Source: Synergistaceae bacterium
GTDB taxonomy: Bacteria; Synergistota; Synergistia; Synergistales; Synergistaceae
Length of the DNA: 58,914 bases
Reading direction: 5' to 3'
Assembly (NCBI GenBank): GCA_030533085.1
Contig: JAUNJZ010000012.1
Location: 1-58,914, forward strand
Of the stretch, positions 49,746 to 54,005 are shown in pieces (the first letter of the stretch is position 1; every line of letters starts with the position of its first letter). Position numbers and translations under genes: made by a program. Under the pieces are notes generated by a model. That model saw only the letters and a program-made list of their open reading frames with translations. It was not told the DNA's origin and did no database searches.

Positions 49746-49802
49746 CACGCCGAAAAGCGGAGCCGGAATCCTCCGCAGTGACTTTTTATAACTGAATATT
49801 AT

Positions 49803-50012
49803 TCTTTGGAGTATGGGAATCCGGTTAAAAGCCGGAACGGCCCCTGCCACCGTAATCGGGACAAAGCCGCGTAACGCCACTGTCGAAAGATGGGAAGGAG
49901 CGGCAAGCGAAAAGCCGGAACGCGAACTACAGCGATTCCGCGCCGGACGCTTATCAGAGTGAAGCAAATGCTCTGAAACAGAGGATGAACGAAAGTCGGG
50001 AAACCTGCCAAG
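49803..50012 (+). promoter_or_regulatory. Cobalamin (B12) riboswitch
   Basis: The leader carries the class I/II cobalamin aptamer elements in order: GGGAATCCGGTTAAAAGCCGG (P3-like start, quoted in part), CCTGCCACCGTAATCGGG, the B12-box region GCCACTGTCGAAAGATGGGAAGG (GCCACTG being diagnostic) and the 3' segment AAACCTGCC. The ends are approximate. It precedes a TonB receptor and is followed by a strong terminator, so cobalamin should switch transcription off. Confidence 0.93.
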
Positions 50013-50070
50013 GGAGAGCTAGTGGCTTTAAATGCGCAGAGGGCGCATGGCAGCGGCCTGCCGGCGATAA

Positions 50071-50110
50071 ATATGCGGGAGACGGTGTCAAACCCTCCCG
50101 CATATTTTTA
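50071..50110 (+). terminator. Riboswitch expression-platform terminator
   Basis: ATATGCGGGAG (50071-50081) pairs perfectly with CTCCCGCATAT (50095-50105), followed by TTTTTA. It lies between the aptamer and the receptor ribosome site (GGAGGT at about 50121). Confidence 0.85.
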
Positions 50111-50133
50111 TATACCTTACGGAGGTAGTCGCT

Positions 50134-52180
50134 TTGAGATTAAAAGCCGGTTCGGTCATCTTCTTTCTGCTTCTTTTTGTATTACAGATAGCCCCCCCCC
50201 CATCAGATATGTAGTCTGTTTGTCAGCCCCAGCGACGCGGCGGAGGCTCCGGTCGCACTTCCGGAAGTGTCGGTTACAGCCGACGCCGAAGAAGAGGACA
50301 AGCTGCTGCTCTCCCCCGGCACAGTCACAGTCATTCGCCCGCAGGAAATGAAGGGCGAGCAGAAAAACCTCCCCGAACTCCTGAAACAGGTCCCGGGGCT
50401 TCATATAATAGAACTCAGGGGACGCGGCTCCTACACCACCGCCTCAGTGCGCGGCAGCACCGCCTCGCAGGTAGCCGTCTACGTGGACGGCGTACTGATG
50501 AACCTCGGCAGCGAAGCCGCCGTCGACCTTTCAACAATACCCGTTGAAAACGTCGAGCGCATAGAAGTCTACCGCGGCTACATTCCGGCGCGCTTCGGCG
50601 GCGCATCCATGGGCGGCGTCATCAACATCATCACGAAAAAACCCGACGGCAAAGGAGAAGGCTCGCTCTCCCTCGGCGCCGGCTCCTACGGCAAATTCCG
50701 CGCCAACGCCGCGTACAGCACGAAGCTCGGCGACGGCAATATATTCGTCGGCGTCACGCGCGACCAGGCCAACGGCGAATTTACCTACCTCAACAGCCGC
50801 AACGAATACGACCCGAACGACGACTACTGGGCGAAGCGCAAAAACAACTCCTACCAGAACACAGACGCCCTTATCAAATGGCAGAACGAAAACTGGACGA
50901 TTGAAGGAGCGTGGAAGCGCAACGACCGCGACCTGCCGCTGCCCATCATAGGCATCGAAAGCGACAAATCCTGGGAAAAAGGCCCTAAACAGGTCACAGA
51001 CCAGATGAGCTTCGCCGCCTCCCACCGCCGCGAAATAGGGGCGCTCGACCTCGGCCTGCGCCTTGAATATCTCCATCAGGAAAAGAAATACGACGACCCG
51101 AAAGAGGGCGACAGCCAGTTCGGCCTCCCCGGCTACAAAAACAAACACAACCGCTACCTCACAGACCGCTACGGCGTCGCGCTTGACGGCTCGCTGCCCG
51201 TCGGCGAAAGCCACCTGGTAGAATTTCTCTGGAACTACTACGACGAAACGCTGCGCACAAAAGGCGACATAGTTGAAAGCTACCCCGCGCTCAACGCCAC
51301 GGAAAAACATACCCGCTACGCATGGAACGGACAGATACAGGACACCATCAGCCTCAACAGGAAAGACAACCTCTGGCTCACGCCCATTATCCGCTGGAAC
51401 AGCGCCGACGGCCGCACCGAATTCTCCGGCGGCGCGGCGCTCAACTACAAATTTGACGAGCACTGGAGCGCGAAGGCCACCTACGGCACATACAACCGCG
51501 CGCCGAACATGTACGAGCTATACGGAGACGGCGCCTTCGTCGCCCCCAGCCTGGGGCTTGAATGGGAAGAGGGCACCCAGTGGGACGTGGGCGTCAGCTG
51601 GAAGGGCGACCTCTTCAAAGGCAAAAGCGAAGTAACCCTCACCTGGTTCGGCAGCCATGTGGAAAACCTCATCGAATACTTCGTCGTCAACCCGCAATAC
51701 GCGCGCTACGAGAACGTCGGCAAAGCCCACATCAAAGGGCTTGAGCTGGAAGGCTCCGTCAAATGGGAGGACTGGGAGATATACGGCTCCGCCACCTGGA
51801 TGGAGGCGATAGATAAATCAGACGACAGCGCCTTCGACGGCGTGCGCATCCCCAACCGTCCCGAATACGAGGGCTTCCTGCGCGTCGCGCGCGGCAACCT
51901 GCTCAAAAGCAAACAGCTCTCCGCCTTCGCCGAGGCGCGCTACATAGGCAACAACTTCTACGACCGCAAACAGGAGGTCAAACAGGACGACCTGCTGACG
52001 CTCGGCCTCGGCCTGCGCTACAGCGTCAGAGAAGACCTCAAGCTTGTCGTCGGCGTGGACGACATCTTTGACCGCGGGCCGGAGGTCTTCTTCCTCGCGG
52101 AAGGCTACGGCCCCGACCGCACCATGTGGTATCCGCTTCAGGGACGCACCTTCTACGCGACGCTGATATGGACCTTCTGA
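50134..52180 (+). CDS. btuB: TonB-dependent cobalamin receptor (BtuB-like), out of frame at a C10 tract
   Basis: An outer-membrane receptor. After GGAGGT, TTG 50134 opens a signal-peptide-like stretch (RLKAGSVIFFLLLFVLQIA). This runs into ten C (50192-50201) and then a TAG at 50212. The remaining 637 residues are open from about 50215 in another frame and hold a full plug domain (VSVTADAEEEDKLLLSPGTV, QVPGLHIIELRG, GGVINIITKKPDG) and a 22-strand-type barrel ending in an aromatic residue (LQGRTFYATLIWTF). Removing one C, or adding two, joins both parts. This may be phase variation or a sequencing error. The riboswitch points to cobalamin as the ligand. Confidence 0.85.
50192..50201 (+). repeat. 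Poly-C tract of 10 in the receptor signal-peptide region
   Basis: Ten consecutive C. With this length the signal peptide ends at a TAG 11 bases later; with 9 (or 12) C it is in frame with the receptor body. Confidence 0.95.
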
Positions 52181-52199: not shown

Positions 52200-54005
52200 A
52201 TGACTGTGAAAAAAAGAAAACTTATTCCGCTGCTTGCTTTGCTGCTCCTCATTATACAGGCGGCCGCCGCGCGCGCCGACCTGCTCTTCACGCGGCAGAC
52301 CACCTACAGCGACCCCGTCTCGCTCGGCATCATCGTCGGCGACGGCGCCCCCTTCTCGCCGCTCCAATCCAACATGGGCGGCAACCAGGGCAACGGCATC
52401 CGCCCATTTCTTGACGCGAACGGCAAACTGCGCGTCGCCCTCACCTTCTACACCGGCGTCGGCGCCGCCGCGGCGGACACCGTCAACATATTCGACCCGG
52501 GCGGCAGGGCGAGCTGGGGCGTCCCCTCAAACTGGAACACGCCGCTCAAACAGTTCACCTGCTCCGTAAAAAACATCCGCGCCATGTCCACCATAGGCAG
52601 CTACCTCTACGCCACCGGCTACGACCGCTGCGTCATCTCGCGCATCGTCATGACAAACGATTCCTACGTTGAAAACAAAGTCTGGACGCATCCCGATCCG
52701 ACCTACAAGCACGGCGAGGGGCTCTTCACCTACGCGGGACATCTCTACGCGATAATAACCAACGCCCAGGGCGACCCCTTTGACCCGGCCATCTCCTACA
52801 GCCCGAACCAGATATGGAAATTCGACAAAGACCTCAACGTAATAGCCAGCGCAGACATGAAGGGGCGCAACATGGACGGCCAGCAGCCCGGCGTCTACAC
52901 CCGCGTCGGCAATAAGCTCTACGTATGCAGCTTCGGCGGCTACCAGGTCACGACGGGCGGCTACAATCAGAACACCACGATAGAAGTCTGCGACCTGGAT
53001 ACGCTGGAATGCACCCAGCTGCTGCGCGGAGAGGAGACGCACGCGCGCTTCCCCGAATGGGTCTATATGTTCAGCGGCATCGCCTTCCTGAACGACAAAG
53101 TCTACCTCCACGGCACCACCTGGACGGCCCCCGCCGGCGTGCAGGGCAGCCATGAGATGGTCGTCTACGAAACCACGGAAGAAAAGCTCGCGGCGGGAGA
53201 CATCGGCACGCGCATCGCCAGCTTCGTCGGCGACTACGGCGTGCAGATGGGGCTCAACTACGACCCCGTCACCGGCTACCTCTGGGCGCACGCCGGAGAC
53301 AGCATCGCGCGCTACAACGGCGGCACGAGCTGGACGGAGTTTAACGCCGCGGCGCTCGGCGGCTCTCTCACCGCCTCCGCCCCGATAGCCGTCGCCTCCA
53401 CCGGCGGCAGCGGCGCCGTCATCCCGACAATCGTCCCCGTCGAGGCGGCAGACATATCCGCGAGCGGCGGCACGGTAAGCTCTATAAGCGCGAACGAAGA
53501 CGCCCCCTCCGCCCTCGCCCAGGCCGTCACAGACGGCGGCTACGGCACGCTCATCACAGGCGGAGACGGCTTCGACGCCGTCAGCCTGCTCTGCTCCGTA
53601 ACGCTCGACCTCAGCCACGCCGGCTCAGACTCGGCGGCCTTCACGATAAAGAACTTTGACCACACGCCGCAGGCCGGCGCGTCGCTCTGGGCGATGCTGC
53701 GCAAAAAAGCGGGCTACGGCAGCAGCTACGACATATTCCCCGCAACGCTCGACGGCACGACGCTCACCTTCACCATTACAAAGCTCGACGATTACTTCAC
53801 GGAAAACACGATAGTAATAGCCGAGACGACCGCGGTGGAAATACCCGACGAGCCGACCCCCTGGACGGGAGACGGCGCGGGCACAGGCGGCTGCGACGCC
53901 GGCGCGGCGGCAATTGCGTTACTGGCTTTAATCCCCCTTGCGGCGCGCGGGGGGAAGGAAAAGATAAAGAGCGAAACAGAGGAAAGGGGCGGTACGAAAG
54001 GCTGA
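52200..54005 (+). CDS. Surface protein with beta-propeller-like domain and Synerg-CTERM tail
   Basis: A 601-residue exported protein. The signal peptide ends near AAAARA (residue 27). Residues about 30-400 are repeated strand-rich units with aromatic and Gly-x-x-Tyr elements (GSYLYATGYDRCVISRI, GHLYAIITNAQGDPFDP, GNKLYVCSFGGYQVTTGG, GLNYDPVTGYLWAHAGD), as in beta-propellers. A shared domain follows (about 460-560), then a Synerg-CTERM-like segment (GGCDAGAAAIALLALIPLAAR) with an unusually long charged tail. It lies 20 bases after the B12 receptor, so it may be a surface partner for cobalamin capture. Confidence 0.75.
   Translation: MTVKKRKLIPLLALLLLIIQAAAARADLLFTRQTTYSDPVSLGIIVGDGAPFSPLQSNMGGNQGNGIRPFLDANGKLRVALTFYTGVGAAAADTVNIFDPGGRASWGVPSNWNTPLKQFTCSVKNIRAMSTIGSYLYATGYDRCVISRIVMTNDSYVENKVWTHPDPTYKHGEGLFTYAGHLYAIITNAQGDPFDPAISYSPNQIWKFDKDLNVIASADMKGRNMDGQQPGVYTRVGNKLYVCSFGGYQVTTGGYNQNTTIEVCDLDTLECTQLLRGEETHARFPEWVYMFSGIAFLNDKVYLHGTTWTAPAGVQGSHEMVVYETTEEKLAAGDIGTRIASFVGDYGVQMGLNYDPVTGYLWAHAGDSIARYNGGTSWTEFNAAALGGSLTASAPIAVASTGGSGAVIPTIVPVEAADISASGGTVSSISANEDAPSALAQAVTDGGYGTLITGGDGFDAVSLLCSVTLDLSHAGSDSAAFTIKNFDHTPQAGASLWAMLRKKAGYGSSYDIFPATLDGTTLTFTITKLDDYFTENTIVIAETTAVEIPDEPTPWTGDGAGTGGCDAGAAAIALLALIPLAARGGKEKIKSETEERGGTKG

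What the first reader, a model, noticed from the sequence alone, without database searches (positions are those of the whole stretch)
50192..50212. Possible phase-variable cobalamin receptor via a C10 tract
The B12-riboswitch-controlled TonB receptor has ten C inside the signal-peptide coding region. At this length translation stops after 26 codons, and loss of one C (or gain of two) restores a full-length exported receptor. Poly-C slippage at the 5' end is a classic phase-variation device for surface proteins. For a vitamin receptor it could evade phages or colicin-like toxins that use it.
Basis: partly seen in the sequence, partly recalled or inferred. Interest (0 to 1): 0.78.

Follow-up and report, generated by a model that had tools for sequence, protein, structure and literature searches.

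The report
Poly-C on/off switch in B12 receptor
A Synergistaceae bacterium carries a run of ten Cs in the export signal of its vitamin B12 receptor that currently breaks the gene and that one slipped base would restore; the same kind of run sits in front of at least ten other surface-protein genes of this genome and in two related genera, so it is most likely a random on/off switch for the cell surface.

Summary
Window 50192-50201 is C10, 58 bases after a TTG start (50134) with a good ribosome site, behind a cobalamin riboswitch and terminator-like hairpin. At C10 translation stops after 26 codons; C9 or C12 gives a 681/682-residue exported BtuB-like receptor. The rest of the gene is intact and under purifying selection (dN/dS about 0.16).

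The tract is not conserved in orthologues: other genera have C6, C5, C4 or none, in frame. Phase variation is nevertheless the best reading, because of the rest of the genome. It has 21 C/G runs of 9 or more. Ten lie in a duplicated promoter-leader cassette (at least 11 copies) at one place: start, 17 codons, C9-C12, signal peptide, surface protein. Two copies are ON, eight OFF. A C15 tract similarly breaks a prepilin. A closed relative (G015) and another genus (G005) repeat the architecture (2 ON, 6 OFF). A second riboswitch-controlled B12 receptor without a tract makes switching affordable.

Slippage itself, and phage or toxin evasion, are not shown: no reads or sister strains were available. 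A new member of a known kind; no report for a B12 receptor or for this phylum was found.

The parts
49790..50026 (+). cobalamin riboswitch aptamer (RF00174)
   Evidence: cmscan 56.7 bits, gathering score 31.5; riboswitches also precede the orthologues and the C23 paralogue
50069..50107 (+). terminator-like hairpin followed by a T run, presumed expression platform
   Evidence: MFE -26.9 kcal/mol, z -3.6 against shuffles
50121..50126 (+). Shine-Dalgarno GGAGGT
   Evidence: sequence; the GGAGGT...TTG pair recurs in six orthologues and the paralogue
50134..50136 (+). TTG start codon of the receptor
50155..50190 (+). hydrophobic core of the signal peptide (VIFFLLLFVLQI)
   Evidence: translation, mean Kyte-Doolittle 3.1 over 12 residues
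50192..50201 (+). C10 tract, the proposed switch
50212..50214 (+). TAG stop reached at C10 (OFF state)
50202..52180 (+). remainder of the BtuB-like TonB-dependent receptor, joined to the TTG start only at C9 or C12
   Evidence: Plug PF07715 and barrel PF00593; best curated family TIGR01779, below its cutoff; dN/dS 0.075/0.473 against G015
52200..54005 (+). neighbouring beta-propeller surface protein with Synerg-CTERM-like tail, likely same transcript
   Evidence: next to btuB in six other loci; propeller model matching BtuG structures

Best explanation
The C10 tract is a slipped-strand contingency switch on a cobalamin receptor. During replication the run gains or loses a C. At C10, the assembled state, the ribosome starting at TTG 50134 leaves the frame inside the signal peptide and stops after 26 codons, so no receptor is exported. 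Cells with C9 or C12 make the full receptor whenever the B12 riboswitch permits transcription. The receptor belongs to a larger set of poly-C-switched surface genes in this bacterium: at least ten surface proteins (mostly Synerg-CTERM) behind a duplicated promoter-leader cassette, and a prepilin. The likely benefit is heterogeneity of the cell surface (hiding from phages, toxins or host recognition), and a second, non-switching, riboswitch-controlled B12 receptor on contig C23 covers the cost of OFF. Shown here: the tract, the frames, the intact and conserved gene, the recurrence of the architecture. Inferred: that tract length varies in the population, and what selects for it.
For: Exact ON/OFF frame geometry with a conserved start. 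Gene otherwise intact, dN/dS about 0.16. 21 C/G runs of 9 or more with a plateau in the length spectrum. Ten copies of one 5' cassette with C9-C12 at the same codon, 2 ON and 8 OFF; an eleventh has C8. Prepilin with C15, ON at C14. Same architecture in closed genome G015 (6 genes, 2 ON, 4 OFF) and in G005 (2 OFF). Homologues found by protein similarity alone: C7-C9 in 6 of 6 G015 loci and C7-C11 in 3 of 6 G005 loci, about 0.2 expected over all 30 loci at the window's rate. Tract meets the published cutoff of 9 for G/C tracts (PMC5953494). Tract-free paralogue with its own riboswitch.
Against: No tract-length polymorphism could be examined. Orthologous btuB genes lack the tract (C6, C5, C4 or none). 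The number of C runs of 9 or more is not above higher-order Markov expectation. The btuB tract lies after the hydrophobic core, not before the signal peptide as in the cassettes, so it is a separate origin.
Confidence: 0.73

Rival explanations
1. The gene is fixed OFF: a recent frameshift happened in its longest homopolymer and the receptor is a young pseudogene, made dispensable by the C23 paralogue.
For: Only one genome; out of frame; orthologues in frame without a tract; a paralogue exists.
Against: 637 codons intact, dN/dS about 0.16; the break sits exactly in a C run of hypermutable length, in a genome where such tracts stand at the 5' ends of surface genes in both ON and OFF states.
Confidence: 0.12
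2. The true length is C9 and the tenth C is a sequencing or assembly error; the gene is simply intact.
For: Long C runs are error-prone; draft assembly of 76 contigs; frame would be normal at C9.
Against: C8-C9 runs inside unrelated genes (minD-like, histidine kinase, glycosyltransferase, prepilin peptidase, patatin-like) are all in frame; A/T runs of 7 or more in ORFs are in frame in 24 of 25 scored cases; a closed relative shows the same mixture of states. Even at C9 the tract would remain switchable.
Confidence: 0.09
3. Programmed slippage: RNA polymerase or the ribosome slips on the C run, so that C10 gives a steady low level of receptor rather than OFF.
For: Nine of ten OFF tracts at gene starts in this genome need the same shift, one C fewer, though most are copies of one cassette; runs of CCC codons are known sites of +1 frameshifting (own knowledge).
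Against: The OFF tracts of G005 and one each in G015 and G000 need the opposite shift. Lengths differ between near-identical cassettes, as slippage mutation predicts. No stimulatory element was looked for.
Confidence: 0.06

Closest known systems
Neisseria HmbR and HpuA haemoglobin-uptake receptors (poly-G tracts in the reading frame; PMC3786947)
   Same: Outer-membrane nutrient receptor systems switched by a G/C homopolymer of about 9-13 in the coding frame, ON at every third length
   Different: Ligand is haemoglobin, not B12; switching there is proven by strain surveys; no riboswitch layer is described there
Neisseria pilC (poly-G/C tract) and opa (CTTCT repeats) phase-variable families (PMC5953494; position in the signal-peptide region from own knowledge)
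   Same: Repeat near the signal-peptide coding region; opa is a multi-copy surface family, each copy with its own repeat, like the cassette family here
   Different: Unrelated proteins and phylum; here a promoter-leader cassette is shared by proteins with different mature parts
Listeria inlA 5' poly-A tract (PMC2831843)
   Same: Homopolymer close to the start gives a very short product and reversible inactivation of a surface protein
   Different: Poly-A, single gene, no gene family
Bacteroides BtuB-BtuG loci (PMC10404256)
   Same: BtuB-type gene next to a surface beta-propeller gene, several such loci per genome
   Different: BtuG is a lipoprotein; the protein here has no lipobox cysteine and carries a Synerg-CTERM-like tail; no phase variation of those loci is mentioned in the passages read

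Membership tests
Translational phase variation by a simple sequence repeat | G/C tract of at least 9 (PhasomeIt cutoff) | tested here: met
   C10; cutoff from PMC5953494
Translational phase variation by a simple sequence repeat | Tract in the reading frame such that single-base length changes switch between full-length and truncated product | tested here: met
   C9/C12 681/682 aa, other lengths 25-73 aa
Translational phase variation by a simple sequence repeat | Full-length frame intact and selected | tested here: met
   637 open codons, dN/dS about 0.16
Translational phase variation by a simple sequence repeat | Tract length differs between cells or strains | not testable with these tools
   No reads and no second genome of the species; viral contigs gave no match
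Translational phase variation by a simple sequence repeat | Tract retained in orthologues (supporting, not defining) | tested here: not met
   C6, C5, C4 or none in related genera; tract retention is met for the cassette proteins
BtuB cobalamin receptor | Plug and TonB-dependent barrel domains | tested here: met
   PF07715 2.6e-21, PF00593 2.6e-40
BtuB cobalamin receptor | Curated B12-receptor family score | tested here: inconclusive
   TIGR01779 is the best family, 176.1 bits, but the cutoff is 599.7
BtuB cobalamin receptor | Control by cobalamin | tested here: met
   RF00174 directly upstream, also in relatives; by sequence only
BtuB cobalamin receptor | Binds and transports B12 | not testable with these tools
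   needs uptake assay
BtuG surface propeller (gene 52200-54005) | Beta-propeller fold like BtuG | tested here: inconclusive
   Model pLDDT 65.7; BtuG chains among the top matches, TM to 0.63 by target length, with other propellers alongside
BtuG surface propeller (gene 52200-54005) | Lipoprotein anchor (lipobox cysteine) | tested here: not met
   Signal region MTVKKRKLIPLLALLLLIIQAAAARADLL has no cysteine; Synerg-CTERM-like tail instead, just under its cutoff

The most novel reading that the evidence does not exclude
Synergistaceae possess a poly-C contingency system: a duplicated promoter-leader cassette (at least 11 copies in this genome) and similar leaders in at least two other genera place a hypermutable C tract before the signal peptide of Synerg-CTERM and other surface proteins, and in this lineage a vitamin B12 receptor and a prepilin have joined it. 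Each cell would then display a random subset of surface proteins, a surface-variation repertoire in a phylum for which I found none described.
Probability: 0.6. Interest if true: 0.75.

Novelty: new member of a known kind. Interest (0 to 1): 0.6.

Why it matters
Outer-membrane vitamin receptors are usually pictured as regulated by need alone, here by a riboswitch. A stochastic switch on top would mean that part of a population gives up one B12 route in advance, which points to a threat that enters through that receptor, and it can be tested by sequencing alone. The wider finding, a multi-gene poly-C switch set in Synergistaceae, would be a surface-variation system in a little-studied phylum of gut and oral bacteria, with ready-made loci for read-level tests in public metagenomes. 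Searches of the paper library found no description of either; the library lacks most subscription journals.

Tried and rejected
Pattern scans of viral contigs for the btuB tract, the cassette tract and the C38 tract found nothing. Count-based enrichment of long C runs: Markov models of order 2, 3 and 4 disagree (4.5, 43 and 24 expected runs of 9 or more, 21 seen), so the count was dropped as evidence. A frameshift screen of the held DNA flagged mostly short-run cases that look like overlapping genes, not checked one by one. An internal restart giving an exported protein at C10 was considered and rejected: in the receptor frame the first usual start after the tract is GTG 50267, behind the signal peptide. 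Poly-C counts in some draft relatives (for example G021, G022, G023, G026) were not used because several tracts lie at contig ends and may be sequencing artefacts. The other C8 runs of this genome mostly lie in ordinary intact genes or between genes, so the pattern starts at C9.

Full report
Observation. The window reads ACGGAGGTAGTCGCT-TTG AGA TTA AAA GCC GGT TCG GTC ATC TTC TTT CTG CTT CTT TTT GTA TTA CAG ATA G-C10-ATCAGATATGTAG (TTG at 50134). With ten C the frame from TTG 50134 ends at TAG 50212 after 26 codons; with nine or twelve it runs to the stop at 52178-52180 as a 681- or 682-residue protein with a signal-peptide-like N-terminus. The start is not arbitrary: GGAGGT followed by TTG recurs in six orthologues and in the paralogue. 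The gene is preceded by a cobalamin riboswitch and a terminator-like hairpin.

What the gene is. The mature part has complete plug and barrel domains. Its best curated family is the B12 receptor TIGR01779, but below that family's cutoff, and BtuB chains are the best solved relatives. With the riboswitch, BtuB-like is a fair name; transport of B12 is not shown. The gene is open over 637 codons, and dN/dS against the 87%-identical orthologue of G015 is 0.075/0.473. The same genome has a second receptor on contig C23, 54-56% identical, with its own cobalamin riboswitch and no tract. Organism: relatives named in public records are Synergistes and Fretibacterium and the neighbours carry Synerg-CTERM tails, so I infer a Synergistaceae genome; its own name is not given.

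Is the tract conserved at this gene? No. At the corresponding place, just after the hydrophobic core, G015 has C6, G005 C5, G047 C4, and Synergistes sp. RUG.71 no long run; all are in frame. The site is thus C-rich in several relatives and became a long tract in this lineage. By itself this would leave phase variation as a guess.

The genome around it. All C or G runs of nine or more were listed: 21, with lengths 9 (nine), 10 (six), 11 (two), 12 (three) and 15 (one). With 44 runs of seven and ten of eight (derived) the spectrum falls about four-fold from 7 to 8 and then levels off. Reading each place showed that ten of the 21 lie in copies of one sequence: about 280 bases with a TTGACA/TATATC-like promoter, AAGGAG, ATG, 17 codons, poly-C and a signal peptide, followed by different large surface proteins; of those scanned, several have GLUG or Big_2 repeats and a Synerg-CTERM tail. 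A DNA search with the cassette found these ten, an eleventh with C8 and three fragments at contig ends. Two copies (C37:112169 and C49:15763, both C12) are in frame and give 727 and 562 residues; seven need one C fewer; one needs one more. In addition a C15 run near the start of a prepilin-like gene is out of frame, and C14 would join it to the pilin leader GFTLVEI.

Other genera. In G015 (a single 3.585-Mb contig) six genes have Shine-Dalgarno, start, 13-18 codons, C9 or C10, signal peptide; two are ON and four OFF. In G005 two such genes are OFF. Because those were found by looking for C runs, I also took homologues of the cassette proteins found only by protein similarity and measured the longest C run near the signal peptide: 7, 9, 8, 9, 8 and 7 in all six G015 loci fetched, 11, 9 and 7 in three of six G005 loci, and at most 5 in the 18 loci of G014, G046 and G047. 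At the window's rate of such runs about 0.2 would be expected in 30 loci. The cassette DNA itself is not recognisable in G015 or G005, so the tract outlasts its surroundings. This is the strongest evidence that poly-C tracts at signal peptides are maintained and not accidents.

Why not an error. Runs of C8 or C9 inside other genes of this genome are in frame: minD-like, a histidine kinase, a glycosyltransferase, a prepilin peptidase, a patatin-like protein and one Synerg-CTERM protein. A/T runs of seven or more inside ORFs are in frame in 24 of 25 scored cases. The out-of-frame tracts concentrate at the 5' ends of surface genes, and the closed G015 genome shows the same mixture. Reads would still be needed to exclude an error at this one tract.

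Mechanism. Shown: the tract, the frames, the intact gene, the repeated architecture, the mixed states. Inferred: replication slippage changes the length; OFF cells lack this receptor; the riboswitch acts on top. HmbR and HpuA of meningococci, haemoglobin-uptake proteins with poly-G tracts in the frame, are the closest working analogues (PMC3786947), and a published cutoff for a phase-variable G/C tract is nine (PMC5953494). Phage use of BtuB is well documented in Salmonella (7 of 25 phages, PMC3424200), but nothing here shows that a phage or toxin uses the Synergistaceae protein. The paralogue on C23 makes loss of this receptor affordable.

Side finding. The gene after btuB (52200-54005) has a homologue next to btuB in six other loci, including the C23 paralogue. 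A modest AlphaFold model (mean pLDDT 65.7) is propeller-like and matches Bacteroides BtuG structures with TM up to 0.63 normalised to the target, among other propellers. It lacks a lipobox, so it is not filed as BtuG, but a BtuB plus surface-propeller pair anchored in a different way is plausible.

Verdict. As a kind of system it is known; the B12 receptor as target, and the Synergistaceae poly-C gene set, were not found described in the library searched.

Noticed in passing
G000 contigs C19:32967, C20:43723, C37:112169, C37:76639, C45:7538, C49:15763, C50:69517, C59:5713, C70:9657, C74:6171, C76:72208 (L100, L101, L104, L127, L107, L109, L110, L112, L113, L114, L115): Eleven copies of a promoter-leader cassette with C8-C12 before the signal peptide of large surface proteins, mostly Synerg-CTERM; two ON, eight OFF, one next to a short, probably decayed gene. 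Three more fragments sit at contig ends (C9, C15, C17).
   Followed up: yes
G000:C52:9022-9036 (L111): C15 tract (minus strand) near the start of a prepilin-like gene; out of frame as assembled, in frame at C14 (ATG 51 bases before the tract; its ribosome site is weak).
   Followed up: partly
window 52200-54005, and L226, L227, L228, L229, L230, L231: Beta-propeller-like surface protein with Synerg-CTERM-like tail next to btuB in seven loci; model resembles Bacteroides BtuG. Possible B12-capture partner anchored differently.
   Followed up: partly
G000:C24:44340-44350 (L103): C11 run about 120 bases upstream of an open frame for a polysaccharide biosynthesis protein (Polysacc_synt_2); could vary transcription or the leader.
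   Followed up: no
G000:C38:825-835 (L105): G11 run at the junction of a PAPS-reductase-like frame and a DNA-methyltransferase-like frame (by eye), in a contig that looks prophage-like; two more G9 runs in the same contig.
   Followed up: partly
G000:C19:32326-32334 (L100): A second C9 run inside the surface-protein gene of cassette C19, also at a frame break, so that this gene is interrupted twice.
   Followed up: no
L209, L216, L217 (G005); L219, L223 (G014): Repeated C9-C11 elements of another type (a purine-rich flank, C tract, then ...cctcc), mostly not at gene starts; nature unknown.
   Followed up: no
L077 (G024:C9:2867): C12 run at the end of the signal peptide of a beta-helix-like protein, in frame: the same position as in btuB, in another genus.
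   Followed up: no
G000:C13:58886-58944 (end of window and beyond): G8 and G9 runs on either side of a ten-N scaffold gap; sequence there is unreliable.
   Followed up: no
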